This document shows positions 6,037-50,507 of a stretch of DNA of 64,000 nucleotides, piece by piece. The position numbers and the translations under genes are program-made. Position 1 is the stretch's first letter, and every line of letters starts with the position of its first letter. The stretch is taken from NCBI GenBank assembly GCA_025024175.1, contig QCXZ01000041.1, positions 16,115,786 through 16,179,785 on the forward strand, read 5' to 3'. Origin of the DNA: Rhyzopertha dominica (Eukaryota > Arthropoda > Insecta > Coleoptera > Bostrichidae). The notes beneath the pieces are model-generated. The model saw nothing but the letters and a program-made list of their open reading frames with translations. It was not told the DNA's origin and did not search any database.

Positions 6037-6460
6037 CAGGGTGTCAGTTAAATGATGTCATTAATTTTAGATGGCCATTCCTGAGCGATTTTATGAAGAA
6101 AACCTTTATAAACGTATGTCCTAACTTGTTTCGTTTTCGACTTACAGGGTGTCAAAGTTTTGATTTTTTATTTGTTTTTTGTAAATACTTTCCGATCTAA
6201 TAACCATATCTCGATGAAATTCGGTATATGGAGGTTTTTCGGGGCGAGCAATTCAAAAATGTTATCGAATTTGTGAAAACTCGTAGAGGACGCCAGCTGC
6301 ACTAATATCATGGTCAAATCGGTCATAACTTTTTAGCGCGCTATGTTTCGACAAGCAGCACTCTTGCAACTTATTCCCCTGGCAATTCTAAGCAAAAAAG
6401 ATACTCTTTGTCGAAAGCTCTCGGAGCAACCGTTTTTAAAATAATGGCGATTAAAAGTTG
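6037..6460 (+). repeat. Left terminal inverted repeat of the DD41D element
   Basis: About 424 bp, reverse-complementary to 7782-8213 with a few substitutions and one-base indels. The outer 106 bp (6037-6142) is separated from the inner part by TA and a second CAGGGTGTC terminus at 6145. Confidence 0.9.
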
Positions 6461-6611
6461 TTATGAACTCATGAGAAGACCTATTCATTTTACTAATCAA
6501 CAGAATCATGGCTGGCCATGACTGACCTGATGGGTCAGTTTGACGTTTTCAGACGCCAGTTTGACGCTTTCAATTTTGTTTGAAGTAGTTTATCTTAGCA
6601 AATTTAGTAAA

Positions 6612-7679
6612 ATGAATTTTGTTGAACAAGCTGAAATGCATTTTGTTTATGGACTTGCGGATGGAAACGCTGCAGAAGCCAGAAGAATTTATCAAGCACG
6701 TTATCCTAACAGAGCCGTTCCATCAGAAAGAACTTTTGTAAGATTGCATGCTAGATTGTGTAATACTGGATCACTAAATAAACACGATGAACGTCCTGGG
6801 AGACCTAGAGTCCTAATGACGCCAGAGTTGGAGGAAGCAATTCTTCGAGAAGTTGAAAATAATCCTTCAACAAGNACTCGAAAATTAGCGTTACAGTTTA
6901 ATGTCTGTCGCCACAGTATTCAATCGGTGTTGCATGCAGATTTATTGTATCCCTACCATGTGCAAAGAGTACAGGCATTGCTGCCAAGAGATTTTCCTAC
7001 ACGACTGGGCTTTTGTCAGTGGTATCTCCAACACCTTGGAAACAATCCCAACTTCACGTCATTAGTTTTATTTACTGATGAAGCAAATTTTTCACGGGCA
7101 GCTATTATTAACTTCCACAACAATCATTTTTGGAGTCATGAGAATCCCCATGCTGTTGTGGAACGAGGATTTCAACAACAATTTTCAGTGAACGTTTGGG
7201 CGGGAATTATTGGTGATTATATCATACGGCCACATTTTCTCCCTCTGCGACTAAACGGTGAGACATACAGACAGTTCCTAGAAGAAACATTGCCTCAATT
7301 GCTAGAAAATATCCCACTGCAAACGAGGCAAAATATGTGGTTTATGCACGATGGGGCACCTGCTCACTTTAGTCTTACCATCCGTGAACACCTTAATGCA
7401 ACTTTTGGTCAACAGTGGATTGGCTGTGGAGGACCTCAACTTTGGCCACCAAGATCGCCCGATCTTAATCCACTGGATTATTTCTTTTGGGGTCATCTCA
7501 AATCCCTTGTTTATGCAACGCCAGTGGTGGATGAGGAGGACTTGCGAAATAGAATTTTAATTAACGTTAATTTTATACGAAACACTCCAGGAATTTTGGA
7601 ACGTGTGCGGCAATCGATGAGGAGAAGACTTCATGCTTGCATAGCAAGTGCGGGTTCCCACTTTGAACATTTAATTTAA
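6612..7679 (+). CDS. Mariner-like transposase (DD41D)
   Basis: A DDE/D transposase that would bind its own inverted repeats, excise the element and insert it at TA. The 355-residue frame is the usual size for mariner transposases. Residues 1-65 form an insect-type helix-turn-helix (ARRIYQARYPNR, ending RPGRPR) and a second HTH-like region follows at about 70-115. The catalytic residues visible are D156 in LFTDEANF, D247 in MHDGAPAHF and D289 in SPDLNPLDYFFWG, with 41 residues between the last two, hence DD41D. The C-terminal tail SAGSHFEHLI is typical. I chose ATG 6612 because alignable sequence begins at MNFVEQAEMHF; the frame stays open upstream to 6540. One codon, 88, contains an N; otherwise no stop or frameshift is visible, so it could be active. 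Confidence 0.93.
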   Translation: MNFVEQAEMHFVYGLADGNAAEARRIYQARYPNRAVPSERTFVRLHARLCNTGSLNKHDERPGRPRVLMTPELEEAILREVENNPSTXTRKLALQFNVCRHSIQSVLHADLLYPYHVQRVQALLPRDFPTRLGFCQWYLQHLGNNPNFTSLVLFTDEANFSRAAIINFHNNHFWSHENPHAVVERGFQQQFSVNVWAGIIGDYIIRPHFLPLRLNGETYRQFLEETLPQLLENIPLQTRQNMWFMHDGAPAHFSLTIREHLNATFGQQWIGCGGPQLWPPRSPDLNPLDYFFWGHLKSLVYATPVVDEEDLRNRILINVNFIRNTPGILERVRQSMRRRLHACIASAGSHFEHLI

Positions 7680-7781
7680 AAAATTTTTTGTTTCGTTTTT
7701 AATTTTTTTTGTGATTATCTTAAATAATTGTAAATTAAATTACGTTATTGAATTATCGATAATCTTTTTGATGATATTTAT

Positions 7782-8213
7782 TGAAACTTTTAATCGCCAT
7801 TATTTTAAAAACGGTTGCTCCGAGAGCTTTCGACCAAGAGTACCTTTTTTGCTTAGAATTGCCAGGGGAATAAGTTGCAAGAGTGCTGCTTGTCGAAACA
7901 TAGCGCGCTAAAAAGTTATGACCGATTTGACACCATGATATTAGTGCAGCTGGCGCCCTCTATACGAGTTTTCACAAATTCGATAACATTTTTGAATAGC
8001 TCGCCCCGAAAAACCTCCATATACCGAATGTCATTGAGATATGGTTATTAGATCGGAAAGTATTTACAAAAAACCAAAAAAAAAGCAAAACTTTGACACC
8101 CTGTAAGTCGAAAACGAAACAAGTTAGGACATACGTTTATTAAAGGTTTTCTTCATAAAAATCGCTCAGGAATGGCCACCTAAAATTAATGACATCATTT
8201 AACTGACACCCTG
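7782..8213 (-). repeat. Right terminal inverted repeat of the DD41D element
   Basis: About 432 bp, the partner of 6037-6460. It runs from the segment containing ATCGCCATTATTTTAAAAAC through an inner CACCCTG end at 8103 to the outer CACCCTG end at 8213. Confidence 0.9.
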
Positions 8214-8215
8214 TA

Positions 8216-11074
8216 TTTACGTATTTATCAAGTTACGTTCATTTGAAAAATGTCAAAAATTAAACATTTTAAACCAGTACCGAAAATATATGTGGCGTAC
8301 AAACTCGTACAACCTCTCATTTTTGACAATTATGAACTTTAGTTTGCATCTTTTTTAGGATCAGATTGGCCCTTTACATTTATTTTGCAATGTATGAGTA
8401 TCTACCTATTGATTAGAATCTAACATAACCCTCAAAACAATGAGGCAGCACGACTATTCTCCACAAAAGGGTATTTTACGCGGGAATTTTTCCGTTTTGA
8501 AAATAATAACAATAACAAGCATGTAAGCCATATTCACGTGTTGATCAATCTAGTTTCAAAAATTGGGAAAATACCCAATTCATGCTATGCTGTTTACACT
8601 ATTGATTTTTAAAGTACTTATCTCATTTTCTTAGCTGTGTTTTTGTATTCTCTATTTTTGCTGTATCTTCGCAGTATCGGTTGTACCCGGTGTGTTGTGA
8701 AAGTAACCGGGTCAAGTAACCCGATGATGATTTTTGTCGTTGTGAACGTAGGTCGAAGTGTTGTTCTACAGCAAACTGAAATGTCACGACCTGTCACTTA
8801 TGTCGATTGTCAAACCCGTTTCGTCTGTTATTTACATTGACATTGCGGTTATCCGCAATAAAACATTCCGTATTAGTGTCAGCTAATAGTAATAACATCT
8901 AATTTTTATCAGTGCAATAAACCACGTATTCGTCAAATGGGCCAAATATCAAACTGGAATTAGATTATACGAACTAATCTACAAGACAGGCGATAAGTTC
9001 GCGTTAAAAGGAGAAAACAGTGGCTTGTTTAGCCCATTTCTAACAAGACTGCTAAAAAGACAAACCATACTATTATTCAAACACAGTTGAGTTGCCTTCC
9101 GCATAGGACCTCACTCGGTCATGCTACCAAAAATCTTTCCAGCTTTGAATCTTGAGAGTGAAATGATGTAGTTTAATTGTGCTAATATACAATTGTTCAA
9201 TAGTTTGTTAAACATCCAAGATCGAATTTTATTTGTTAATAAATTAGGTGTGTTTAAAATTATTTCGTATTATTTTTGATTATGAATACATAAGATCTCC
9301 TCCAATTAATGTGAGTAACTTAGTGCATTCAGGTTATCATATGGCAAAATTATGCACTTTCCTCCACGCGTATCTGAATTCCTATCAATTTTTTCCGCCA
9401 AACAAAAATAAATTAGCAACAAAGAAGTCACTCAGGATAAATTTGGAAGTAAAAAAAGTAACACTTCTATCGCAAACTGGAAATACTATCTATATGATAG
9501 CAATAAAACACGAAAATGTAGATATGCAGATTTATGTTAATGTTAATTTCACTAAACGATTTTGAGTAATATTAGAATGTTTTTGTATTGCAATTTGTGT
9601 ATTATATTATAATGGTTATTAGTGTTCACTAAAAGGTACAAAAAAGGTATTTATAAAAATTAAAATTCAGCGTAAAGTTTGTTAATTTAATAATACTGAT
9701 AATTCTTATTGAATAATTGAAACTCATGTGATGTGTTCGTCTACTTGTGTCTGTCTATTTGTGTTTGACTTGAATGCAGAATGTATTTGTGCACGTATTT
9801 TCAACCACATGTGTATTAGAGTATACCACGGAAACACAATTTTAACGTCTTATTTCCAGATTCGTTGTATACACTTTGACCACAAAATGCTAAACGAATG
9901 CGCCATTAACTATACCAAGAGATATAAATATACAGGCTAATGTGGGAGTGACCCCGCATTTTGCTTAATAGCTATATAAAAGGAACAATGCAAAGTTGAC
10001 AAAACGTCACGGCAGCCAAATGAAAAGATTCCTTTGTGTTTTTTACAGGCAGTCATATTTCACTTTGTACCTGAAAAGTAAATGAAAGTGAAATGTGAAA
10101 AGGCTTTTGTAACGAGCATCGCACTGCTGTACAATAGACATTTAAAACGTCCTCTTCCCTTTATGCCCGTTCAGAAAGCTCTAACGGACATTAAAGCAAT
10201 ATTTCATAATGGCAACTGTAATTCTTGGCTTTCCGAACTTTACAGTACTAGCAGCAACATTGAAACTGTTTACATCGTTAGCTTTTAATTTATCTTAAGA
10301 AGACAAGCAGAAACGATGGTGCAACCACCACTAATGCCTGATAGTATGGTGTCAACTAATTGAGAGTTAGACACATTTGCCGTAACTTTCAAATTTTTAA
10401 TGCCTTCACTTGCTGAAAATTCCATTATTTCTGATACGTTGACAATCCGCTAAAATGTATTTTATGCGTGGGCATGTGCTCATTATAGTGAACAAATAGT
10501 CCTCTCGTGGTCTCTGTCTAAACCTTGATTACCTATTATTGGTTTTGTGCTCACTGAACATCACGTAGGCGGTACGGACGAACAAATGAAATATAATTCA
10601 AGGACATCACATTTATGCGAGGAACTAATGTCTTGGGGGCTTTGGAGATTACTAGATATAGAATGAAAGACAGATTCATTTTGCACTATGTGGATGTTTA
10701 CAAGCTTACAGTTCAAAATTCTTACCAGGACGATGTTACCACAACTATGTAATAAAGAATTTTTATTAAAGACACATCAATGCTATTATAAGTATCAAAT
10801 CGATTTTCTTGACGGATTCCTCCGACCTAATAATATGCTTTCACTAAGGAGCAAAAATTATTTTTTAAGTTTCTCGTACTTAAGTACATTTATATTTATC
10901 TTAGGTATGTTTTTGTCTTGTAGATATCTTGCAGAAGACAAGCTTTGCTTAGTTACGCCTTGGCTATTGCCTAAGCGCAGTCTGCATGTTTCAAACTACT
11001 TCTAAAAAAGCTCATTTAGCTGTCCATCAGTGCCAGTCTTATAAGATGGACACGTTTTAGCATCATTTTGGTGG
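8216..11074. other. No gene seen
   Basis: About 2.9 kb of AT-rich DNA. Open frames at 8637-8840, 9248-9565, 9728-9940, 10082-10288 and 10688-11005 are short, show no domain, and have the low-complexity composition expected by chance. No repeat family was recognised. Confidence 0.5.
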
Positions 11075-23862: not shown

Positions 23863-24973
23863 CTGAAACAAAGAAATAAGGCTTTTTAGGAAATGTCGCA
23901 AATACCTAAAAATGACACCTATTCTACCCTTATTTACTACGTGAAATCTGTTTTAATGTGCTATTGTTCTCGGCCACAATCGTACAACTGAATGTCTAGT
24001 AAACTGAGAGTAAAAAAGAGTTATGTGAAAGCGCTATAATAGTTATTAGCTTAACTCGAAATATATGGTTAATTAAGGAATAAATATAATATGCGATATA
24101 CATATGCTATCTTAATTTACTTGAATAAGATTTATTTTCAAATTGACTTGATAAATAAATAAATAATCTGATACTTATTTATATAAATAAAGCTACTGGC
24201 TACACTAAAACTTAAAGTCCATATTTCAACAAGACATTCGAAAATCAGGATTAACATTAATTAATAACTAATAGACTGCTTGTGCAGCGTACAACTATAT
24301 ATGAATGGCATCCAATGGCACCAACATACTAATGCATGGTGCTGTGATTATCTCGAATTTTATATTGCCAATTGGGGTGCTCTCAGAATAAGCTTCGTAA
24401 GCCCGAAATAAACACTTCGGGCTCTACAATAAACACTGCTCCCCCATTTTTGCGAAAGTTAGACAGGGGCAACAGGGACGTTTTGAACAGGCTCTTATTA
24501 TCTTACGATCTATTAACAAGCAGCAGAAGGCCACAGCCGTGTAAGAAGAGCAAGCCATTTTCTTATGATTTCAACATAAGATTTTTGCTGCCACAGATGC
24601 AATGCGCGCAAGATAAATCTGAGAAGAAGATCAATCATATTATGACGATTAATTTTTTATTATAACAATGTAGCAATATGTTATCACATTCTGATTTTTG
24701 TTGTTTGGATTTATTAAAAGCTATTATGTGTTCAGTATTTTGGATTTGCTGAAGTACTTAAAAAAAAGTTGCCAAACTTTGTAGTCATACTTATGCATAT
24801 TTATGCATCGTGTGCAAGAATAATTTTATTTATTGATTAACGAAACTATTTGTCAGAAGAAATTCATATTAGGCAGTAACAGGATTTAGTAATTAGTGTT
24901 GTACCTGCGTTAAAAAGATTTACGAGGCATTTGCAGTTTTTAAAAGGAACTTAGCAATACAAAAATAATTATA
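23863..24973. other. No gene seen
   Basis: AT-rich spacer. The 24372-24665 frame lacks any recognisable domain. Confidence 0.45.
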
Positions 24974-26757
24974 CAGGGTGATTTTTTGAAAACTTCACAC
25001 CTTAAATAACTTTAAATAGAGGAAAAATTTAAAATTTTGCAAAAACCGGTAAACTTTTGTTTGCAGGGGGACAACTTTTGAGATAAGTTTTTAATGGATA
25101 GCGCTTACCCTCTTAGCGGGGTAGATACCCCTTCAAAAATTTTAAATGAAACTACCCATCTTACGATACATCATTTAAAAGCTTATTACACAAGGAGTCT
25201 TGCCATGTAATTAGTTTTACTATTTTTTACCCATTGACGGGGTAGTGGATCAAAAAGTGCATTGTAGCAAGTGGCTTATAAAATGGAATATTTTGGACTT
25301 TTTTAACAAAATTTATTGTCTTGCAGTTACAATAAAAATTGTCCTTACTTAAGCCTAAAAAAACTTGTTAAAAATAATTGTTACACCTAAGCAAAATGCC
25401 AAAAATACTTAAAATTTTCTTTCGACATTACTTGATATTGCAACTCGTTTATACTGAATTGGCTAAATAATTATCTACTTTGTGTTTCCAATTTTTTGTT
25501 TCAACTTTTTGGCTACTTCTTTGGCATGACCACCTTTATGTTCACATTCCTTTTTATAAATCGCGTGAAATTTTAAAGTGAGAGTCCAAGTGATAATGGT
25601 TTATTCAACTGCCGAAAGGGTAGAAATAATTTTTATTTACGGTGCTGAGCATAGCTGTGCTCGTGCGTCAGCAAGGGTGTTTAACGAACGGCACCCCGAT
25701 AAAAATGTTGACGCTAGGTACATTCTCGATCTCGTGCAGAAATTTCAAGACACTGGATCTGTAGTAAACAAGAAAAGGGCAGGGAATAGAGTCGTTGATG
25801 AAATGGCCCAACTTGAAGTACTTGGTCATTTTGCAATGGATCCAACTAGCTCTTTGCGTAACATTTCTACAGCCACTGGACTTTCTTATTCATCTGTAAG
25901 GAAAGTTACAAAACTGCGCAAATTCCATCCCTATAAGATGAAAACTCTCCAGGAACTCGTCGAAGAAGACTTCGATAGAAGACTGCAATTTTGCGAAATT
26001 ATGACAGAAAAGATTATAGTAAATCCAAATCTAATAAAAAATATCTGCGAGAAAGAATTATTAACGAGTGCAGGAGGATTCCACCTAAAACTTTCCGAAA
26101 AGTGCAGCAGGAGTTCGAGAACCGTCTGTATTATTGTATGGAAAGAGGTGGTGCACATTTTGAGAATCTATTGTAAGGTTTGAATTTCTATGGTTTTGTT
26201 CACACTGTTTTTGGAGTTACAAAAAAATAATTATTCTTTTTCGTGGACATGGACTTTACATTATTACATGATAAATACTTTAATGTTAATAATAATGTTA
26301 AAAGAAAATTTTCAGTATTCTGGGAGTTTTTTTTAAGTGTNATATTATTTACAAGTTGTTTGTTTAAATTTTGGGTTCTCGTAAAGACAAATTTTATTTC
26401 CGCTCTAAAATAAAATACATTTTGTTGAAAAGAGTCCAAATTATTCAATTTAATAAGCAACNTGTTTCCTAGGCACTATTAATCTATTACCCCGTCAATA
26501 AGTTAAACGTGGTAAAACTAATTACATGGCCAGACTCTTTGTGAAATAAGCTTTCAAATGATGTATCACAAGATGGATAGTTCCATTTAAAATTTTTAAA
26601 GGGGTGTCTACCCTGCTCAGAGAGTAAGCGCTATCCATTAAAAACTTATCTCAAAAGTTGTCCCCTGCAAACAAAAGTNTATCTGTTTTTGCAAATTTTT
26701 AAATTTTTGCTATATTTAAAGTTATTTAAGGTGTGAAGTTTTCAAAAAATCACCCTG
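24974..26757 (+). mobile_element. Tc1/mariner element, internally deleted
   Basis: Begins CAGGGTGATTTTTTG and ends with its reverse complement, flanked by TA at 24972-24973 and 26758-26759. Inverted repeats of about 271 bp (24974-25244 and 26487-26757) match well, with a few substitutions and N. The transposase inside lacks its catalytic core, so the element could move only if supplied in trans. It is a different family from the 6.0-kb element despite the similar CAGGGTG tip. Confidence 0.92.
25596..26176 (+). pseudogene. Mariner-like transposase missing the catalytic domain
   Basis: From ATG 25596 the frame reads MVYSTAERVEIIFIYG and an HTH domain (ARVFNERHPDKN, KFQDTGSV), then a second DNA-binding region (SLRNISTATGLSYSSVRK) and the linker FDRRLQFCEIMTEK. 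Immediately afterwards, in another frame at about 26040-26176, comes the family's C-terminal tail (INECRRIPPKTF, YYCMERGGAHFENLL). The roughly 150 residues that should carry the three catalytic aspartates are absent. The junction near 26030 marks the deletion and frameshift. Family members are about 340-360 residues. The first frame itself runs on to a stop at 26183. Confidence 0.88.
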
Positions 26758-26759
26758 TA

Positions 26760-27793
26760 TAAAGGCCAACACACGGACTTATATCTGTTTAAGGATTTGT
26801 GCAACGCAGACATTCCTTTTTATCCAAATGCTATAAATTTGTCGATGCGAGCATAAAACGAGACTGCTAAAATTCCTTCCTCATTCCTGACCCAGCTTTG
26901 TTGAATCGCTTGCGTTACTGACACAGAGGAGAAGCAAACTAGACGACATAATATGTAATTAGAGAACGCCTTAGAAGCGAAACCGCGACGATTGCATAAT
27001 AACAGAGTTTGCGAAATGTGCCAGTGTGCAAAAAACGCAACCTCACTGCGGGGTCACATTATTCCTCGCATTACATTGTGCGCGGAATGAATGCAGAGTG
27101 GAGCGTGGAAATTCAATGCGGCAAAACAACGGAAAATAAACAGAAGCAGAACTGCATTCTCTCATACTTTCTATGCAGTCCGGGATTTTATTATATACGA
27201 AGAAAGATGGGTGGTGAAATGCGGAGGCACCATTTGTTAGCAAAAATTCTGATTTTGCGTATTCCTAACTAGCTAAGTAATTGCTCTAGTAAATACAGGA
27301 AATTTTTGCTGCTTAACGTAATGTCAAGCAGGCTAGTCATTTTTACGATGGCATTGTGGAGTAGAATAATGAATAAACACATTAGAAGTAGTAGTAGTAG
27401 TAGTATTATTAAGACTTGTCGTTTACACAAAAGTATTTTACAGAAAACTTTTCTAACGATTGCTGTGCGCCAGGACAGGCTTAAAACCTCAGCATGTTTG
27501 TCAATTGAACAAAACTTTATTCACGCAGAAATAAGACCTTTTAGTCTAATTGCACTTTATTGAAATAAGATGGAAATGTTTCGACCTTATCAAGAGGTCA
27601 TCAGCACTTACGCTTACAAACACTTAGGAGTGGAAGTTCATTCAGGACACCTCCTTAAATTTTACTTTTAATGCATATTGTAACATATTACAAATTGCAC
27701 GGCACCCACTATATTTATTAATAATATTGCCGCTTCAAAACATTTTTCTTTATAAAGCCTGTGAACTAATGTGTTTTCTGTTAAACTTGATAA
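26760..27793. other. No gene seen; GC-richer block and AGT microsatellite
   Basis: Roughly 26810-27240 is moderately GC-rich with overlapping frames on both strands and no splice evidence. A short (AGT)n tract lies at about 27386-27405. Near 27565-27610 the minus strand carries CTGATGACC and GGTCGAAAC, hammerhead-like but not foldable into an acceptable ribozyme. Confidence 0.4.
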
Positions 27794-27899
27794 TTCCCAC
27801 ATTACTTATTTGACCTTGACGTTTCGATACTCATGTCGGTGTCTTGCTCAGAAGTAGCTCTGAAACTGAAGTGTCCTAGTCCGCTCCGGTATTTATACT

Positions 27900-28560
27900 C
27901 GTCCGGCTCACTAATGAGTGGGCGTTGTTACGTCTGACTGGTTTCCAGATTCCAGGTAGTTCGATGCCTTGGTTTCGGTTATAATTGTGCGGATTCTTCT
28001 GGATTTCGATGACCTCCTTGTACAGTCTCGGCCTGGATTTCGCTTCCCTTGACAGCATTTGTGTCTCGTCGAATTTGATGATGGCCAGTCTCCATTCGGT
28101 ATTCTGTTACAGTCGACCTGTCACATTGACGGTCTCTGGTGTCCCTGATGTGCTCCTTGATTCTCGCGATGATGTGCTTTCCAGTTTGGCCGATGTAAAC
28201 CTCCCCATAGCTGCATGGGATGCTATACACACCCGGCGTTTGTAGCACCTCAGTCGTGGAACCATATTTCGCAAAGGCGTTAGCTATCTTTCCCGGGCGG
28301 TGAAGATAGTGTTTATATGATGTCGTCTCAGCAGCCGTCCGATCTTATCTGTACATCCATTGACGTAGGACAGGTATGCTGCAGCGATGTACTCTTCTGG
28401 TTCCTTCCTCCGTGGTTGCATGTTGATAGCCTTTTCAATCTGTGCCTTAGGATATCCGTTCTTCTGTAGTGCTCTGCGTAGATGTTCTAATTCCTCTTCT
28501 AGGTGGTCTGGTTCGCTGATTAGCTTCGCTCGTTGTAACAGCGTGTTGATTGTGAAATCC
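27900..28560 (-). pseudogene. Penelope-like ORF, C-terminal part with GIY-YIG nuclease
   Basis: The minus strand encodes the end of a PLE reverse transcriptase followed by its GIY-YIG endonuclease, which cuts target DNA for priming. Reading from 28560: FTINTLLQRAKLI, LEHLRRALQKNGYP and YLSYVNGCTDKIGRLLRR (RT C-terminal region), then after a one-base shift near 28287 the nuclease GVYSIPC and EVYIGQTGKH with RIKEH, and after another shift near 28060 the conserved tail KEVIEIQKNPHNYNRNQGIE and LPGIWKPV. The catalytic core motif GVY...YIGQTG is visible. Truncation of the RT N-terminus and two frameshifts make it inactive. Confidence 0.88.
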
Positions 28561-28696
28561 GCACAATCATAACCAAGACCGAGGCATCGAACTACCTGGA
28601 ATCTGGAAACCGATCATGCGCAGCAACGCCCACGCATCAGTGAATCGGACGAGTATAAATACTGGAGCGGACTAGGACACTTCAGTTTCAGAGCTA

Positions 28697-28704
28697 GTCC
28701 TGAG
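28697..28704. repeat. Left 8-bp hAT target-site duplication
   Basis: GTCCTGAG, repeated perfectly at 31872-31879 on the other side of the hAT element. Confidence 0.95.
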
Positions 28705-31700
28705 CAGTGTTGTAAAATGACGGTCATTTTAAACTTTGTGACAAATGACCGTCAAATGACGGTCATATGACCATCATTTTGGTCAATTTGATAATCTTTG
28801 ATAATTCGTTAATATTTCACTTTTTTGATTATATGAGGGCCGTTCCCATTCTATTAAGCTTACTATAGAAAGACACTATCTTTTTTAAAACATTTAAAGA
28901 TAACTACCACCACAGTACAGGTTAAAAAAAAGGTAAGTAAATTAGAATGAAAACATAATTAAACACATTTAGAAATATATTAAAAAAAACAATAAAAAAC
29001 ACAAAGTAAATTATAAGTAAAAAAAATAAAATTATTCTTTATTAACATGCTTAAAAATCTTTCTTCAGTCTGTGTCGGAATCTGTAACCTCGAAGTTTCT
29101 TTCCAAATCTTCGTCTTCTTCAGTTTCGGATTCCGTCTCTGTTTCAGTTCCTGTTTCCGATCCCAATTCGGTTTGCATTTGTTCCGAATTGTGTTCAAGT
29201 GAACTGGGATCAAAGACATAGTCATCACCTATTACAACAGGAGCTTGTAAAGTATGTGCTGATGATGAGGAAGATGCAGCTCCTATACATGCACATGTGT
29301 GTGGATCTTGTGATCTCCCGGACCTGGCCGAATTTATACATTTCCTGACATTGAGCAAATTTAAGTTGTGGTGGATGTAAGTTAATTTTCCAGCTCTGGA
29401 TGTAGTGAGTCTGTTCCTCTTTTTGCTGTGAACGATTCCTTGTGCACTAAATGCTCGCTCAGTGGAAGCAGACATTGCAGGTAGTCCAAGTAAAGCTTCT
29501 GCAACATGTCTTAAAGAGAGATTTGTGCAAATACCTTTCCAGAAATCAAGATGTAACATATTTTTGTTGTTCATTGAGTACTTAACAAACTTATATGAAA
29601 AAAAATCCACTTTCAGAACGATATTCTGCCAACTCTTTGAAGACTGCATCAACTTCCACATTTTTCAAATAAACTGCAAAATCGTGTATATATTGTAGAC
29701 CTTCATTGCACTGAGCATCGTTAAGGTNTTTGCCNCTGAAGGAAGGATCAAGGATATTCGCTGCATAATGCACCGGAGTNAGGCACATTTTTTCCCTTNT
29801 TGTCAATGCATCAAGTACCTTTCCTTCTTCCGATTTTAAAAGTGACGAGTTAGGAATTTCCTGTTCGAACTGTTGCCTAATTTCACAAAAAGCTTCTACA
29901 ACCTGACTTATATTTGGAGTGTCTGACTGCAACTTTATAATCCATTTCTCGATGGACTGTAGCAGTGAAATGAGTTTTTCAACATTTGCCCAAAATTTAT
30001 CTGTGTCTAGAATATGTCGTCGATCATTCGCATCAAGTTCAGTTTGGCCAACATCATTAATCGCTAATGTCTGTAAAACTTTTTTATTTTTCTGTAAGCT
30101 TTCCAGACATAATATCACAGACGCCCATCTCGTCACCACTGGTAATTTTAGAGATTGCCTTCTATTTGCTGGCAACATTTCTGCTTGCAGTTGCACAAAG
30201 GCAGCATTTAAAATTAGTTTGTTTTTAATCATTTTTACGATTGATTTCGCAGCATTGACTATCAAAGCAACCGACTTTAAGTTAAGTAAATTACCACAAA
30301 GCAAATTCAAAGTATGGGCAGCACATCCATAGTATGCGATCATATTATTTGCGTATTTTTCCTTAAGTATTTCCCACGCACAAACCATATTAGTGGCGTT
30401 ATGCGTTACGCAGCCAACTACTCGATCTATTCCAATATCTTCATATACTTGTGAAAGCTGAGTAGCCATAAACTCACCAGTGTGTCGAGAAGTTTTCGTA
30501 GTGAGTGTTCGATAAAACACTGGCTTTGGCGTAGTGACTACAAAATTTATATTACTTTCTCTTCTTAAATTTGACCAACCATCAGCTTGCACACCCAGAA
30601 ACCTGGCATCTGCTATTTCCATTTTAACTTCACTTTTCACTTCTTCAAATGTTTCTTCTAGCAAAGAATTTGACAAAATTGTATCGAGACGGAAGCGGGA
30701 GACTTGGTCGAATATGTTTGAAGGCTTCAGTCCAGTATACATTCTCAGTAATGCTTAACGGGGTGGCAGTTGCATATATCGCGTTCGATAATATTTTCCA
30801 AATTTTTGTTGTTTCCTCGGGAGAAATACTGTGCACAAGAGCTTTCAGTCCGTGTGACTTACTGGATGCTGAAGAAATGCCACTCATATTTTCATTTGCC
30901 GAGTCTATTTTTGAAGGGCCGTCATCGTCAGTGAGTACGTCTTTGCCAACATTATCAGATGTAGGAATCGTTAATGTAAAATTTGTAATAGGACTAGGAA
31001 GAGCCAACCTTTTCTTGAGTTTTAACTTCGTTTTTACGTTTTCTGGACAACGTTGGCATTTTAATAAATGTTTAAGCATTCTAGTCGCACGTAACGCATA
31101 CTTTTGTAGGCAAAAATTGCATGCATACGTGTCTATTTTTCCTTTATTTTGGGCAAGACTAGACTGTTTTGTAAAGTATTTGAAAACATCGCTTTTCACT
31201 CTCATTTTTTGATCTCAAACCACGCACGAGTTGCACTAAGCACCTAAACAAAAATTCGAACAAAATAATTCCTATGTCCTATACTGACATAATATGACAT
31301 GTAAAAATATCTCTGATTGTTCCGCGATTTCCCCTCGAGAGAGAAAGTTTAATTATAAATTCAACTAAAAATTCACAATTGGAAAATCAAAGTTTAAATT
31401 ATACAGTTTTGTTTTTTCCTTATTATTTGTTTTCTTGGTATTGTTGGTGAAGTGGTAATTGAATAAAATAATAATTAATANAACGTTTCGGGAATGGCNT
31501 TTCCCACTTCTCCAAGAATGCCACAAAAACAAATCAAAATTTAATTTAGTACCTTTAAACTTAACCTCAAAAAACCGGGAACTGGAGAGCAAAATGCATT
31601 ATAAACCTTCTACTTTAAACTATAGTAAATTAAGGAATCATTAATGGCAGACACCCGAAACGACTCACTGTAGTTTTATCTAAAGATTGTAATATTCTCT

Positions 31701-36295: not shown

Positions 36296-37400
36296 CTAAT
36301 AGTTGTTAACAATATAGCGGGAAGTAACATGAAACACTTCAAAATAACATTATGATGAAATTTAAATTATTTAAAACCAGTCACACTGACAATGAAAGCC
36401 CATTTTTTGAAAATGTTCTGTTTTAATAAGGAAAGTGGCAATCCAAGATAGTATGAATTAATCAGGATTTACTAGATCTGTGCAGTTCTAGTATATAGGC
36501 ATATGAGTTACTAAGGTCATCAATATCCTTTTGTTACAAAAAATATATATAAATCATGTCTAGAAAAAGACATTTATTAAGTGATCTTTCCGTTGCAGGA
36601 ATCTTGACATTTTCAAAATCCATCCGATGATCATTAGTGATGATATGTTCTGATAGAGCGGTACTATTATTTTCACTGCGAGTGTCTAACGTGATCGCCC
36701 AGTCTCGTTTTTAGTAACTTACAGGCCTCCCTAATGTATTTGTTTCACAGTCATTACAGGATATGCGTATACCGCATACAGGTGATTTATTTAACATGGG
36801 TGTTTGATCTTTTATTTAAGAAAATAGTGTTTTTAGTTAATATAAAGTGCGATATGCGATCCCAGTAATATTTGCTCTACTTCAAGTTTTGGTAAGTTTC
36901 TCACTGTCAGAACATGTCATCACTAATGATCATCAGATGGATTTTGAGAATGTCAAGATACCTGCAACGGAAAAACGAAAAAAACGTCTTTTTCTAGAAA
37001 TGATTCATATGCATTTTTGTAACGAATCTCTTAACAAAAGGACGGATATTGACATTGCCTTAGTAACTCATATACCTATATACTATATAGAAATGTACAG
37101 ATCTAGAAAATCCTGATTAATTCATACTATCTTGGATTGCCATTTTCCTCATTAGAAAAAAGACCTTAAAAAAAGCTCTGTTTGACTTTCATTGTCATTA
37201 TGACTAGTTAATTTAATTATCATCGTATTGTTATTTAGAAGTGTTTTATGTTACTTCCAACTATATTGTTAACAACTATTAGATGTAACCTCAACATGAA
37301 TGTAAGTTTTTTACTGTCATTGAAAATATTCTAAGATTGCATTACATTTAAGGTCCTGACGAAGGAATAGATAAATTTTCGGAAACCTTGACACTCAAAA
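36296..37400. mobile_element. Second Penelope-like element, head-to-head inverted copies
   Basis: Left arm 36296 to about 36670 is the reverse complement of about 36905-37282; the outer edges CTAATAGTTGTTAACAATAT match exactly. The plus arm encodes SEHVITNDHQMDFENVKIPA, KKRLFLEMIHMHF and SLNKRTDID, the conserved C-terminal tail of PLE proteins. The minus arm encodes the same tail plus CNDCETN and KRDWAI from the GIY-YIG domain. Both copies have their 3' ends outward. The plus-strand 3' region continues to about 37400 and contains a hammerhead-like relic. Confidence 0.82.
37353..37398 (+). ncRNA. Hammerhead-like relic in PLE 3' region
   Basis: CTGACGA at 37356-37362 is followed 18 nt later by GGAAAC, with AAGG before and CCTT after able to pair. 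PLE terminal regions are known to carry hammerhead motifs. The stem II strand pairing is poor and the sequence before GAAA is altered, so this is probably inactive. Confidence 0.35.
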
Positions 37401-45519: not shown

Positions 45520-45529
45520 TGAGTAAAGA
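45520..45529. repeat. Left 10-bp direct repeat flanking the hammerhead unit
   Basis: TGAGTAAAGA, repeated exactly at 50498-50507. The two copies lie at the limits of the hammerhead repeat sequence, so a target-site duplication is the simplest reading. Confidence 0.65.
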
Positions 45530-45765
45530 AAGTAAGAATTTAGGATGGCAATGCCATCTGTCAGCATTACACTGACATGATGACAAAGCCACCTAGCTGC
45601 CTAAACGGGTACTACTTCCTAAAGGAAGTGACCTGTAGCCTGACAAATTGGCATGCAACTGCATACTTCAATTTGACAGCAGGCCCCCACGGCACTTTTT
45701 GCTAGCGGGCAAGAACCAACATACATTAAAATGCATGTCTATGCTGTGCTGTCTACACCTCAACC

Positions 45766-45814
45766 AACTGCAGATAGTACTATTTCGCTGTCATTACAGC
45801 TCATCAGTGCAGTT
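45766..45814 (-). ncRNA. Hammerhead ribozyme (copy C)
   Basis: Reverse complement of copies A and B, with all 49 nt identical. The core CTGATGA is at 45807-45801. Stem II GCTGT/ACAGC with loop AATG is followed by GAAA, a four-pair stem III closed by a TA dinucleotide, and C17 at 45773. Stem I AACTGCA/TGCAGTT is seven perfect pairs. Predicted self-cleavage lies between 45773 and 45772 on the minus strand. Confidence 0.93.
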
Positions 45815-45819
45815 TAGGT

Positions 45820-45945
45820 CTAGTCAAGATACCTCTATACGTGGTATACCAACTGGCGGCCATTTTCTTACCCAAATCAAGGGCAAGTTAAGCTACATAA
45901 AGGTAACACTAGATGGCCATACGTTAGTTGCGGACTGTCATGTGT
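45820..45945 (-). repeat. 5' block adjoining the left hammerhead
   Basis: On the minus strand it contains GACAGTCCGCAAC, GCTTAACTTGCC and TAGAGGTATCTTG in the same order as 49636-49763 on the plus strand, where the identity is clearly lower than in the monomer itself. It lies immediately 5' of the hammerhead. Its origin is unknown. Confidence 0.65.
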
Positions 45946-45949
45946 AATG

Positions 45950-48900
45950 TCAGGCAGTTGACATCATAAAATTGACATCATAAAATAACACTTGACATCC
46001 GTAATTTCAAATCCCTTGCAATCTGTACAAAATGAAAAAGTGTGGCATTTACGGGCATGTAAAACTATTAAATATTGATAGTTCATTATTTCAAGTGTTG
46101 ATACAAAAGTTATACTTAATTGTGTATGGCACATTTTAACCAAAAATTTGTACAAGAATATTCAGATGCCGGTAGTAAAAATATTAGAAAGTTGTGTCTA
46201 TGCAGTTCCAACAAAGTTCCCATCCAACCTTCCATCTCAAATATTCCGATTGGGTGCACATATCCTCACATACAAAAAAATATGTGCATCAGTTTTAATA
46301 TAGAAAATTATGTGAATACAGGAGGAATACATGTATATACTTCATGTAGGTGATGATTATAATAAGCTCTGGCCCTGGCTTAATACAGGCAACTTTTAAG
46401 ATGGAACAATTATGACGCCCCCACCGCTTGCCCCTAACATACGTGGTGATTCACTAAGCACGAATAAGTAATACATGTGTAAGTTAAAAATATAGAAATG
46501 GTTCAAGTGAGTCATTTAGAATTAAGCGTTTAGCAATCTAAAAATATTTCGTGGACTCCCCATTATACTGGAAGTGAGCACCAGTTTCATTATTTTAAAT
46601 CGAATACCCTGTGCAATTTTGGATTAAGCCTCGGTCATATTGTTCACGAGTTATTTCAAATTTTCTAAATATTGACGTTTGCAGTGTGCGATAATCATTT
46701 GCAGAAGTTAAATTGACGAATCCCAACTTTTACTAATTCAAACAAGATTAACATTTTTTTTAAACAGGGTGCTGTTTTTCATCTCACAGATAGATGCAGA
46801 ATTAAAACCCTTTCTAAAATGATATAAGGTTGTCAGTACCTATTACTATGGTAGTTGCAGAGATATTTATGTTGTTCTTGAAGTTTTTAATACATATCTT
46901 TAGCATGCTAACCGTGCTTCCTGGCATCCGGGATTGTATCTGGTGATTATGTAGAAGGCAAGCAGCACATATGGTAGCTAGCCAGTTTACAAGATGCATG
47001 GTAATGGTGGGAGATACAAAACTACCTATTAATTTTTCTATTATCGCAAGTGCTTTCTAACATTAACTTGGTAGCCAATACATGTGAATATGTAGAATAT
47101 TCTATTTTTTTTGTGAATTGATTTACCTGTAAGATAAATCAGAATCAAAACTGTTTTTTTTTATTTTTACTTTTTGCACTTCTCTCTATTCATTTAAACT
47201 TATGAAAATTAGATTTTTGAAGGTGGTTTAAATATGACAAGAAGGATCCAGTTTTACATTGATAACAGTGTAAAATCATACAAATTAAAGAATTTAACTT
47301 CTTTTGATTGCTACAGTATTTCCTGGGTATGATTTAACAGCAAGTTAATGTTAGGTGATTGTGATGGTCGATTCCATTATTATTAACCTTCATTACAAAA
47401 ATGAGCTTTTAACTTCATACAGGTGTTTGGAGCAATTCTATTTAAATAGCTTTTCGTATGTAGACATTTTGACATAATCTTTATTTTTTATTCTCGAAAA
47501 TGTTAAATTGAGCAACTCCTGATGCATATAGGTAGCTTCTGTTTGTCTAAGAATAATGTTGAACATAAATTCAAGTTAAATACAACACAACAAATGTTTA
47601 ACTAATTTCCTTTAAGGACAATAAAAATACCACATGCATCAGTATATTCTTTGCAAAATTTAATTAGAATATAAATTTTCATTTTTACACACTGTATCCC
47701 ATAATTAAAAACTTCTGAATAAACAACAGCAATTCAAAACTTGAATTACTGAAATTTTAAGCCGTATTTTTTGAAAGTATTTTTTACACAAATACAGTAG
47801 GTATGTAATTTTACAATACAACAATAATCAGTATTTACATAAACAAAACATCTATAATTTAACATTTATTATATTAACATTTTGGTTTAAACATACAGAT
47901 TTAGGTACACTACAAAAGTCTGAAGGTCCTCCGGAACTTGATTTGGTCTCCCTAATACCCAACAAATCCAGATCTCTTCTTTCACCATCTGTTGAAGCAT
48001 CCCATAATTGTCCAGACTGCGTGAAGACACTAGTTGGGCATGGATTGGAATCTTGCAATTTATTCATAATTTTAAGAAGTAGGGGACACTTGATATTTCT
48101 ATCAGAAGGGCTAATAATTCTTCTTCCGGAAGTTTAAACAATTATTGGAGATTATCTGAAACAAGAAATGAAAAACTGATATTTTAAATGCACTGAAAAT
48201 AAAAAAATTCACGGCTGTGCAATACACAAAACTGAACTGTCAAAAAAATTGCATTTACATTTTTGGTAGCAAGAATGTCACTGACGTGCCAGAAAGAGGC
48301 ACGTAAATGTTCGTCAGAACATGCACAGTCAAAGAAGTATTCAAAATTATCCAAATTAGTTTAGCAAACATTGTATTATTAGACAACTGTTGTTGACAAC
48401 TTTTGAGAGTTACCATTTATTGTTTGTCTCTGAAACTGCAGACTATATTCGGTACCTACATCTTTCTGCTCGATCCCGTTAGATAACACTGGTCATATCC
48501 TACCTGTTCAATAAATGCAAGAAAAGTAAATCTGTATCCTTCGGTTTTTCCAAATGGAATTGGCCAGAATTCTTGAGTTAAGAGATTTTTACATTTTCTA
48601 TGCAGTTTACAGATAAACAGTGTAGTTAGCGTGGTCGAGGAATTTACATATTTGATAGTTATTCAGATGATACTAAGAACATAAGACACATCGTTTATTC
48701 GTGACATAATAGCTGGATAACCACCTGATCAAAATCAGTTATGTCTAGCCTCGACTCTAAAATGTAATTACCGAACCTAACTATAAAGCACAAAAATTTT
48801 ATTTATTTTTTGAACATAGGTATATTCGTATTATTTTTAAATATAATAAGATGAGTAATCAAAATTGTGGATCTACCAGATCTACACAATTGTAACTTTT

Positions 48901-49635
48901 AACTCCCTGTTAGAATTAGCACAAAATAAATGGCAGTATAATTTACATTTCACCTCAAATGTATATGGTAAGTATTTCATATCAAGTTGGTGACTTCTCT
49001 TACATTTATTATTAAAAGTGAGATTCGTAACAGATTTTGGCAATGTTACTAATGTTCTACAGAATATTAGAAAGCTTATGGCAGCATATTTTTAACTATT
49101 CATCAACACTTGGAGTATCAGATCCGTGTTAACAACAGAATGCATGCTTTTACGTCAACTGTTGTACTTACTTGCCTGGTAATATAACTATCACACCAAC
49201 AAATATTACTCCATTCCAACAGCACCATTCTATACTGAAGAACATCAACTAGGGAATTGGCTCTCCCAGGTAAACCAGCTAAATTCTCATGCTAATCACC
49301 CAGATACAATACACTCAACCTAAAAAACACATATTATTATCTAAACAGGTTTAAAATAAGGTTTAACTGACTGGAGACTTACGAAGTGATGTTCTCTCCA
49401 TACCCATTTATGTGGTATGTACGTTTTGGCAGCGTAAATATGGTAACTTCACTTTGTTTTTAGCCGCCAACATTTTCAACACAGCTAGTGAAAAGTTTTG
49501 TAGTATAATCACTGCATTATATTAAATATATTAGAAAATTCTGGGGTACACAATATTAAAAACGTAACAAAATAGTGTATAACACATAATAACATAACCA
49601 AAATAACAAGTTTTGACAGATCGTAAATGCTATTC
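45950..49635. other. Interior of the hammerhead unit; no recognised protein
   Basis: About 3.7 kb, AT-rich. A short direct repeat TTGACATCATAAAA occurs twice at 45957-45986. No RT, nuclease or transposase motif was found in six frames. The only structured signal is a possible minus-strand transcript at 47850-49385, described separately. Confidence 0.5.
47850..49385 (-). other. Possible spliced minus-strand transcript
   Basis: Splice-like signals follow one another on the minus strand: donor GTAAGT ending a segment at 49385, acceptor GTGTTTTTTAG before 49319, donor CAAGTAAGT after 49172, acceptor TCTTGTTTCAG before 48155, then AATAAA at 47870-47865. Joining 49172 to 48155 keeps a 34-codon frame starting MVLLEWSNICWCD; a separate 71-codon frame (48067-47852, containing QLWDASTDGERRDLDLLG) also lies in the last segment. 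Neither matches a family I know. It may be a noncoding or small-protein gene carried in the unit, or coincidence. Confidence 0.25.
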
Positions 49636-49763
49636 TGACAGTCCGCAACGAACCTGCTGCCATCTATTATCCATTAATAAAAGCTTAACTTGCCTCTTGG
49701 TCAGAAACGTCAAATTCCATTCATAAATATACGAGCTGACATACCAGTTATAGAGGTATCTTG
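49636..49763 (+). repeat. 5' block adjoining the right palindrome
   Basis: Shares GACAGTCCGCAAC, GCTTAACTTGCC and TAGAGGTATCTTG, in order, with the minus strand of 45820-45945. It is joined directly to an inverted monomer instead of a hammerhead. Confidence 0.65.
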
Positions 49764-50404
49764 GGTCTAGTGTAGACAACACGGCATAGAACTGGTTTTG
49801 CTTATATACCAAAGCAATGGTATGATGAAAGTAAGAATTTAGGATGGCAATGCCATCTGTCAGCATTACACTGACATGATGACAAAGCCACCTAGCTGCC
49901 TAAACGGGTACTACTTCCTAAAGGAAGTGACCTGTAGCCTGACAAATTGGCATGCAACTGCATACTTCAATTTGACAGCAGGCCCCCACGGCACTTTTTG
50001 CTAGCGGGCAAGAACCAACATACATTAAAATGCATGTCTATGCTGTGCTGTCTAAACTGCACTGATGAGCTGTAATGACAGCGAAATAGTACTATCTGCA
50101 GTTGGTTGAGGTGTAGACAGCACAGCATAGACATGCATTTTAATGTATGTTGGTTCTTGCCCGCTAGCAAAAAGTGCCGTGGGGGCCTGCTGTCAAATTG
50201 AAGTATGCAGTTGCATGCCAATTTGTCAGGCTACAGGTCACTTCCTTTAGGAAGTAGTACCCGTTTAGGCAGCTAGGTGGCTTTGTCATCATGTCAGTGT
50301 AATGCTGACAGATGGCATTGCCATCCTAAATTCTTACTTTCATCATACCATTGCTTTGGTATATAAGCAAAACCAGTTCTATGCCGTGTTGTCTACACTA
50401 GACC
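49764..50404. repeat. Perfect palindrome, 291-bp arms with hammerhead in loop
   Basis: 49764-50054 is, as far as I can read, an exact reverse complement of 50114-50404. The 59-bp centre 50055-50113 is the hammerhead ribozyme plus ten bases. An RNA from either strand would form a long hairpin; only the plus-strand RNA would have an active ribozyme in its loop. Confidence 0.9.
50055..50103 (+). ncRNA. Hammerhead ribozyme (copy A)
   Basis: Self-cleaving RNA of minimal type. Stem I: AACTGCA (50055-50061) pairs with TGCAGTT (50097-50103). Core CTGATGA 50062-50068. Stem II GCTGT (50069-50073) with ACAGC (50078-50082), loop AATG. Core GAAA 50083-50086. Stem III: A50086 to G50089 pairs with C50092 to T50095 across the dinucleotide TA. 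C50096 is the cleavage-site residue. Every invariant core base is present. A very short stem III is typical of hammerheads in repeats and retrozymes, which often act as dimers. Confidence 0.95.
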
Positions 50405-50406
50405 TA

Positions 50407-50455
50407 AACTGCACTGATGAGCTGTAATGACAGCGAAATAGTACTATCTGCAGTT
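50407..50455 (+). ncRNA. Hammerhead ribozyme (copy B)
   Basis: Identical to copy A, offset by 352 nt: core CTGATGA 50414-50420, GAAA 50435-50438, predicted cleavage after C50448. Together with copy A it would release a 352-nt RNA (50097-50448) with ends that suit circularisation. Confidence 0.95.
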
Positions 50456-50497
50456 GGTTGAGGTGTAGACAGCACAGCATAGACATGCATTTTAAGG

Positions 50498-50507
50498 TGA
50501 GTAAAGA
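50498..50507. repeat. Right 10-bp direct repeat flanking the hammerhead unit
   Basis: TGAGTAAAGA, identical to 45520-45529. Confidence 0.65.

What the first reader, a model, noticed from the sequence alone, without database searches (positions are those of the whole stretch)
45766..50455. Three intact hammerhead ribozymes in one interspersed repeat
Seen: three identical 49-nt segments (45766-45814 minus, 50055-50103 plus, 50407-50455 plus) satisfy every hammerhead requirement: CTGATGA, GAAA, a C before the cut, 7-bp stem I, 5-bp stem II and a minimal stem III. Known: short-stem-III hammerheads occur in retrozymes, PLE termini and some animal satellites. Inference: these are active self-cleaving RNAs in an insect repeat family.
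Basis: partly seen in the sequence, partly recalled or inferred. Interest (0 to 1): 0.93.

Follow-up and report, generated by a model that had tools for sequence, protein, structure and literature searches.

The report
Ribozyme retroelement inserted as a palindrome
A small non-coding element that carries a self-cutting RNA (a hammerhead ribozyme) appears to have been copied into this animal genome as a back-to-back pair and later split by another transposon; such elements are already known in animals, but the scar it left hints at which enzyme may move them.

Summary
The three 49-nt hammerheads are real, identical and at the stated places. They are not three interspersed copies but parts of one insertion. 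A 3,939-bp DNA transposon with an 8-bp target duplication (45825-49763) splits that insertion; joining its flanks restores an uninterrupted element. What remains is about 1.02 kb of a 352-nt unit without a long reading frame, each unit with one type I hammerhead, arranged head to head: 579 nt on the minus strand and 444 nt on the plus strand, both with 0 mismatches to the unit. A 10-bp direct repeat, probably a target-site duplication, flanks it. The unit folds as a compact circle (-141 kcal/mol; shuffles -96 +/- 5.7). This is most likely an animal non-LTR retrozyme, a class already reported from insects. The palindromic stem III lets two copies form a perfect double hammerhead; a single copy is predicted to misfold. 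The head-to-head layout, short target duplication and internal ends match the published footprint of Penelope-like elements, the suspected but unproven movers of retrozymes; LINE-type twin priming is not excluded. Self-cleavage, expression and genome copy number could not be tested: the own-genome search did not complete.

The parts
45520..45529 (.). Left copy of the probable 10-bp target-site duplication (TGAGTAAAGA) of the retrozyme insertion; its last 2 bases also fit the element
   Evidence: left edge shares 10 bases with right edge; 10 of 20000 random 14-nt pairs share 9 or more
45529..45816 (-). Minus half of the retrozyme, distal part (ending at unit position 244), includes one hammerhead
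   Evidence: 0 mismatches to the unit
45766..45814 (-). Type I hammerhead 1; predicted cut between 45773 and 45772 (minus strand)
   Evidence: Rfam HH9 28.0 bits, below gathering score
45817..45824 (.). 8-bp target-site duplication GGTCTAGT of the nested DNA transposon, left copy (retrozyme sequence)
45825..49763 (.). Nested DNA transposon, 3,939 bp, imperfect terminal inverted repeats beginning CAAGATACCTCTATA; no transposase domain recognised; not part of the retrozyme
49764..49771 (.). 8-bp target-site duplication GGTCTAGT, right copy (retrozyme sequence)
49764..50054 (-). Minus half of the retrozyme, proximal part (from unit position 18)
   Evidence: 0 mismatches
50052..50054 (.). Head-to-head junction with 3-nt overlap CTA shared by both halves
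   Evidence: read from the edges of the two halves printed
50052..50495 (+). Plus half of the retrozyme, 444 nt, 1.26 units in direct tandem
   Evidence: 0 mismatches
50055..50103 (+). Type I hammerhead 2; predicted cut 50096/50097; sits at the centre of the 297-nt inverted repeat 49761-50057 / 50111-50407
   Evidence: Rfam HH9 24.1 bits
50097..50448 (+). Complete 352-nt unit from cut site to cut site (predicted self-cleaved monomer / circle)
50407..50455 (+). Type I hammerhead 3; predicted cut 50448/50449
   Evidence: Rfam HH9 28.0 bits
50496..50497 (.). Two extra bases (GG) between retrozyme end and right target duplication
50498..50507 (.). Right copy of the probable 10-bp target-site duplication (TGAGTAAAGA)

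Best explanation
This is one insertion of a non-autonomous animal non-LTR retrozyme with a 352-nt unit. Proposed cycle (inferred): multimeric transcripts cut themselves at each type I hammerhead, perhaps most efficiently as a double hammerhead joined through the palindromic stem III. The 352-nt monomers are ligated by a host ligase into compact circles, which a borrowed reverse transcriptase copies round more than once. In this insertion two multimeric cDNAs, apparently primed from the two opposite ends of the target break, met head to head at a 3-nt overlap and left a probable 10-bp target duplication (the anatomy is seen in the sequence; the priming is inferred). The likeliest mover is a Penelope-like element (inferred, about 0.45). 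A DNA transposon later landed in the minus half (shown by its 8-bp target duplication and the restored join).
For: Three motifs meet the hammerhead rules, 0.017 expected per random window. Two are in direct tandem 352 nt apart. The unit folds as a circle at -141.2 kcal/mol against -96.1 +/- 5.7 for 40 shuffles, with 71% of bases paired and no ATG-started frame beyond 42 codons. A circle constrained to hammerhead stems I and II costs only 2.2 kcal/mol. Both halves match the unit with 0 mismatches over 579 and 444 nt. Removing the nested transposon plus one copy of its 8-bp duplication restores continuous unit sequence. A 10-bp repeat flanks the insertion. Two 49-mers fold into an exact double hammerhead at -35.0 kcal/mol; 0 of 500 shuffles give that structure, though 8 of 500 reach that energy. 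Published animal retrozymes share size (150-450 bp), type I hammerhead, GC below 50%, target duplications, when present, above 4 bp, and compact circles, and are reported from insects. Published rotifer Penelope insertions often show head-to-head inverted copies, several with 8-10 bp duplications, and a lizard Penelope protein cleaves and extends both target strands and starts inside the RNA.
Against: No Rfam hammerhead model reaches its gathering score. The lowest-energy fold of a single copy is not the hammerhead; the predicted share of the hammerhead fold is 0.0002-0.003 for copies 1 and 3 and lower for the middle copy (0.00008-0.0009). No other copies could be examined because the own-genome search did not complete. 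The target duplication is exact but has 2 extra bases on one side and a 2-base overlap on the other. The Penelope assignment rests on one insertion; LINE twin priming would give the same layout; some rotifer Penelope insertions lack a duplication, and the authors of that paper prefer self-priming on antisense RNA. In the lizard system hammerhead cleavage was not needed for insertion in vitro. The only Penelope-like piece noticed in the window is a degraded fragment without a detectable target duplication.
Confidence: 0.85

Rival explanations
1. The same retrozyme was inserted by a LINE-type enzyme through twin priming: one long multimeric RNA was primed at its 3' part by the first nick and internally by the second strand, giving an inverted 5' part joined to a 3' part.
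For: Twin priming gives the same outward-facing layout, microhomology junction and target duplication (recalled). Anemone repeats with hammerheads and 15-bp LINE-like duplications are reported. On the minus strand a run of nine A lies about 10 bases beyond the left duplication, outside the insertion as I delimit it.
Against: No poly(A) between either end of the element and its duplication. Both outer ends lie inside the unit (positions 244 and 47). Head-to-head is described as the most frequently observed inverted layout of rotifer Penelope elements.
Confidence: 0.35
2. The palindrome is a DNA-level rearrangement (fold-back repair or strand switching) of an ordinary tandem hammerhead satellite, not the product of one retrotransposition.
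For: Hammerhead satellites exist in animals. The junction has only 3 nt of overlap, as in microhomology repair.
Against: A 10-bp direct repeat flanks the whole inverted structure. Only about 2.9 units are present, no long array; Tandem Repeats Finder lists no row with a period near 352, though two-copy arrays this short could be missed by it.
Confidence: 0.15
3. The motif is a decayed or inactive hammerhead look-alike: it has the consensus but does not cleave.
For: Rfam scores below gathering. A single copy is predicted to misfold.
Against: Core bases and three stems are intact. The double-hammerhead fold is the unconstrained optimum for two copies. Type I hammerheads of amphibians with weak stem III cleave efficiently as dimers.
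Confidence: 0.1

Closest known systems
Metazoan non-LTR retrozymes with type I hammerheads (Cervera and de la Pena 2020, PMC7229834)
   Same: 352-nt unit without a long reading frame in direct tandem, type I hammerhead with weak stem III, GC 44%, probable target duplication above 4 bp, compact predicted circle
   Different: Found here as a head-to-head inverted pair of short multimers rather than only direct tandem; unit sequence not compared with published units (none fetched); expression unknown
Penelope-like elements and their insertion layout (PMC3846280 and PMC11167929, passages read)
   Same: Head-to-head inverted copies, direct tandem copies in the same insert, short target duplications (8, 9 and 10 bp in the passages seen, none in others), starts internal to the RNA
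   Different: No reverse transcriptase or endonuclease gene; hammerhead has a complete, if short, stem III, unlike the minimal Penelope motifs described
Rfam Hammerhead_HH9 (RF02275)
   Same: Full-length model match for two of three copies, same core and helix order
   Different: 28.0 bits against a gathering score of 52; shorter internal loops in stem I (alignment)
Dolichopoda cave cricket pDo500 hammerhead satellite (PMC2837043, passages read)
   Same: Insect hammerhead repeat with a proposed double-hammerhead form
   Different: Described as a satellite DNA family; in its double form stem III stays within one molecule, whereas here stem III would join the two

Membership tests
Type I hammerhead ribozyme | Invariant core CUGANGA ... 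GAAA ... UH with stems I, II, III and stem I open | tested here: met
Type I hammerhead ribozyme | Curated covariance-model threshold (Rfam gathering; a detection level, not a defining feature) | tested here: not met
   28.0, 28.0 and 24.1 bits to RF02275 against 52; low E-values for two copies only at window scale
Type I hammerhead ribozyme | Catalytic fold preferred by energy | tested here: inconclusive
   Single copy no (0.0002-0.003 for copies 1 and 3, lower for the middle copy); two copies yes
Type I hammerhead ribozyme | Self-cleavage | not testable with these tools
   needs in vitro transcription
Type I hammerhead ribozyme | Loop I - loop II tertiary contacts | not tested
   no model of the contacts was applied
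Metazoan non-LTR retrozyme | 150-450 bp units in tandem, one type I hammerhead per unit | tested here: met
   352-nt unit; 1.26 units in direct tandem (plus) and 1.64 (minus)
Metazoan non-LTR retrozyme | Non-coding, GC below 50% | tested here: met
   longest ATG-started frame in the circle 41 codons (plus) and 42 (minus); GC 43.8%
Metazoan non-LTR retrozyme | Highly self-paired circular RNA (prediction) | tested here: met
   71% paired, z -7.9 against 40 shuffles
Metazoan non-LTR retrozyme | Target-site duplication, when present, longer than 4 bp | tested here: met
   10 bp flanking the composite; no empty allele seen
Metazoan non-LTR retrozyme | Absence of LTR, PBS, PPT | not tested
   no dedicated search
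Metazoan non-LTR retrozyme | Multiple genomic copies | not tested
   own-genome search unanswered in 16 attempts; one locus in this 64-kb window
Metazoan non-LTR retrozyme | Expressed linear and circular RNA | not testable with these tools
   no RNA reads available
Penelope-like element | ORF with reverse transcriptase and usually GIY-YIG endonuclease | tested here: not met
   no ATG-started frame beyond 42 codons in the unit
Penelope-like element | Insertion layout: head-to-head inverted copy, short target duplication | tested here: met
   searches compared with passages; works like, not a member
Hammerhead satellite DNA | Long tandem arrays | tested here: not met
   about 2.9 units in all; no tandem-repeat row with a period near 352

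The most novel reading that the evidence does not exclude
The insertion records a Penelope-type enzyme acting on a retrozyme in trans: both broken target strands primed rolling copies of a 352-nt hammerhead circle, and the two cDNAs were joined head to head. That would be structural evidence for the proposed but unproven Penelope mobilisation of animal retrozymes.
Probability: 0.4. Interest if true: 0.7.

Novelty: new member of a known kind. Interest (0 to 1): 0.48.

Why it matters
Animal retrozymes make abundant small RNA circles, but in the 2020 paper that defines them the enzyme that inserts them is only inferred from features shared with, and co-occurrence of, Penelope-like elements. An insertion with readable edges, zero divergence between its halves and a head-to-head layout gives a concrete footprint that can be counted across a genome and set against LINE and Penelope footprints. 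It also warns against reading identical neighbouring hammerheads as independent, conserved copies.

Tried and rejected
Rejected: three interspersed copies. The restored join and zero mismatches show one insertion.

Rejected: a shared 5' region of the retrozyme ('TATAGAGGTATCTTG' before two copies). It is the terminal inverted repeat of the nested DNA transposon.

Rejected: microRNA matches mir-4796, mir-214 and mir-592 (mir-4796). They fall on the long inverted repeat and are far below their gathering scores. One search also listed snR78, MIR1520 and SNORD49 at E 0.96 to 8.3; not pursued.

Looked for and not found: other hammerheads in the window, including minimal ones (one search did print one partial core at 36897-36936 on the minus strand without the rest of the motif) and beside the Penelope-like fragment; an exact 31-base piece of the hammerhead in viral contigs and a 35-place hammerhead pattern in prokaryote contigs; a transposase domain in the nested transposon (nine of the 22 ORFs were scanned, with two sub-threshold matches, FNIP repeat E 0.0063 and PSME4_C E 0.025); papers holding both 'hammerhead ribozyme' and 'twin priming'. 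Among the titles and abstract starts listed (11 of 11; 12 of 12; 20 of 67; 25 of 25; 20 of 76; 12 of 47) I saw none on head-to-head retrozyme insertions; one search found 0 papers. That library lacks most subscription papers, and the 2014 paper on Penelope hammerheads is not held.

Not achieved: copy number, consensus and insertion-edge statistics in the own genome.
Full report
Observation. The three segments are present, identical and at the stated coordinates. A rule-based scan of both strands found these three and no other type I hammerhead; random windows generated with the same dinucleotide frequencies gave 0.017 per window by the loose rule and none by the strict one, in 60 windows. Read along the RNA: stem I AACUGCA/UGCAGUU, core CUGAUGA, stem II GCUGU-AAUG-ACAGC, GAA, then AUAGUACUAU as stem III, and C before the cut. 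The order of helices makes it type I. Rfam gives no hammerhead match at gathering thresholds; with E-values shown, RF02275 Hammerhead_HH9 matches two copies over its whole length at 28.0 bits and the middle copy in part at 24.1 bits, gathering score 52; at window scale only the first two are listed, E 0.0081.

Anatomy. The middle hammerhead lies at the centre of a 297-nt, 99% inverted repeat; hammerheads 2 and 3 are 352 nt apart in direct repeat; and 290 nt around hammerhead 1 recur without change on the other strand. The sequences just before hammerhead 1 and before the inverted repeat were alike only in part (77% over a 65-nt match and 91% over 23 nt; alignment score 61 against at most 30 in 300 shuffles), while the retrozyme parts were identical. 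The reason is a nested DNA transposon, 45825-49763, whose ends are imperfect terminal inverted repeats starting CAAGATACCTCTATA, bounded on both sides by GGTCTAGT. Removing it with one GGTCTAGT gives exactly the sequence of the unit across the join. Nine of its 22 ORFs of 45 codons or more were scanned against Pfam; no transposase domain was recognised, and I do not assign a superfamily.

The insertion. After that correction the element runs from about 45529 to 50495: a minus-strand half of 579 nt (unit positions 18 to 244, 1.64 units) and a plus-strand half of 444 nt (positions 308 to 47, 1.26 units), each with 0 mismatches to the unit. The halves meet 5' end to 5' end with a 3-nt overlap, CTA. 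The outer edges carry the same 10 bases, TGAGTAAAGA, with GG extra on the right and a 2-base overlap with the element on the left. In 20,000 random pairs of 14-nt stretches, 10 shared nine or more bases. I read this as one recent insertion with a target-site duplication; no empty allele was seen.

The RNA. The cut-to-cut unit of 352 nt has 43.8% GC and no ATG-started frame over 42 codons in either strand of the circle. As a circle it folds at -141.2 kcal/mol, 40 shuffles -96.1 +/- 5.7, z -7.9; imposing stems I and II of the hammerhead costs 2.2 kcal/mol; the opposite strand folds at -119.3. A single hammerhead is not the predicted optimum: the calculated share of the catalytic fold is 0.0002-0.003 for copies 1 and 3 and lower for the middle copy. 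These energies ignore tertiary contacts and folding during transcription. Two copies together give, unconstrained, an exact double hammerhead in which the palindromic stem III becomes a 10-bp helix, -35.0 kcal/mol against -13.2 for one. Of 500 shuffles none gives that structure, though 8 reach that energy. A transcript of 49764-50500 is predicted at -619.8 kcal/mol with neither hammerhead formed, so at this locus plus-strand RNA from upstream may be trapped as a long hairpin; that is inference.

Known relatives. In PMC7229834 (abstract, results parts 1 and 2 of 3, and discussion read) animal type I hammerheads lie in 150-450 bp tandem repeats called non-LTR retrozymes, made as about 170-400 nt circles; insects are named among the hosts, and Penelope-like elements are proposed as movers because both share type I hammerheads, tandem copies and co-occurrence. 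The element here meets the features that I could test. PMC4918200 (passages) reports 15-bp duplications around anemone repeats and more than 70% paired bases in such RNAs; here 71%. Amphibian hammerheads with a very weak stem III, one of them capped by a palindromic tetraloop, cleave efficiently only as dimers (passages of PMC7761336 and PMC6155905), which is what the palindromic stem III here suggests.

How it moved. Both halves are longer than one unit, so the template was a multimer or a circle copied more than once. Both outer ends lie inside the unit, away from the cut site, and the sense strands point outwards. This is expected if both 3' ends at the target break primed reverse transcription. 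Passages of PMC3846280 describe rotifer Penelope insertions with direct copies plus an inverted copy and duplications of 8, 9 or 10 bp (others have none), and call head-to-head the most frequently observed inverted layout; those authors favour self-priming on an antisense RNA. Passages of PMC11167929 show that a lizard Penelope protein cuts and extends both strands and starts inside the RNA at a site not homologous to the cut DNA; hammerhead cleavage was not needed there. The match is good, but it is one insertion, and LINE twin priming (recalled) predicts the same layout. On the minus strand nine A lie about 10 bases beyond the left duplication; I take them as flank, but they are told here because a LINE reading might use them. 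The window also holds a degraded Penelope-like fragment, 27845-28706, with a GIY-YIG-like reading frame (29 relatives, two with PF01541 and two named GIY-YIG endonuclease; Pfam itself gave no match) and 151-nt inverted ends at 88.7%.

Limits. The own-genome search did not complete in 16 attempts, so copy number, consensus, other insertion edges and conservation are untested. Cleavage, circles and expression need experiments.

Noticed in passing
window 45825-49763: DNA transposon of 3,939 bp with imperfect terminal inverted repeats of 116 and 128 nt (CAAGATACCTCTATA...), 8-bp target duplication GGTCTAGT and no recognised transposase in the nine ORFs scanned; superfamily unassigned.
   Followed up: partly
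window 27845-28706: Penelope-like fragment with a GIY-YIG-like frame on the minus strand (27979-28344) and 151-nt inverted ends, 88.7% identical; no hammerhead or target duplication found.
   Followed up: partly
window 6034-8216: DUF4817/DDE transposase ORF (6531-7679) inside long inverted repeats of 95-99%, a rather complete and probably recent DNA transposon.
   Followed up: no
window 29065-31214 (-): hAT-like transposase remnants: two of three neighbouring minus-strand ORFs match DUF659 and the hAT dimerisation domain, the third has no Pfam match.
   Followed up: no
window 24969-26762: Second DUF4817 transposase fragment between 79-94% inverted repeats.
   Followed up: no
window 28742-28779: Short palindromic run of ATGACGGTCAT-like repeats just outside the Penelope-like fragment.
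   Followed up: no
window 36897-36936 (-): A partial hammerhead-like core (CTGATGA, 5-bp stem with a long loop, GAAA) without the rest of the motif, inside an inverted repeat; probably chance.
   Followed up: no
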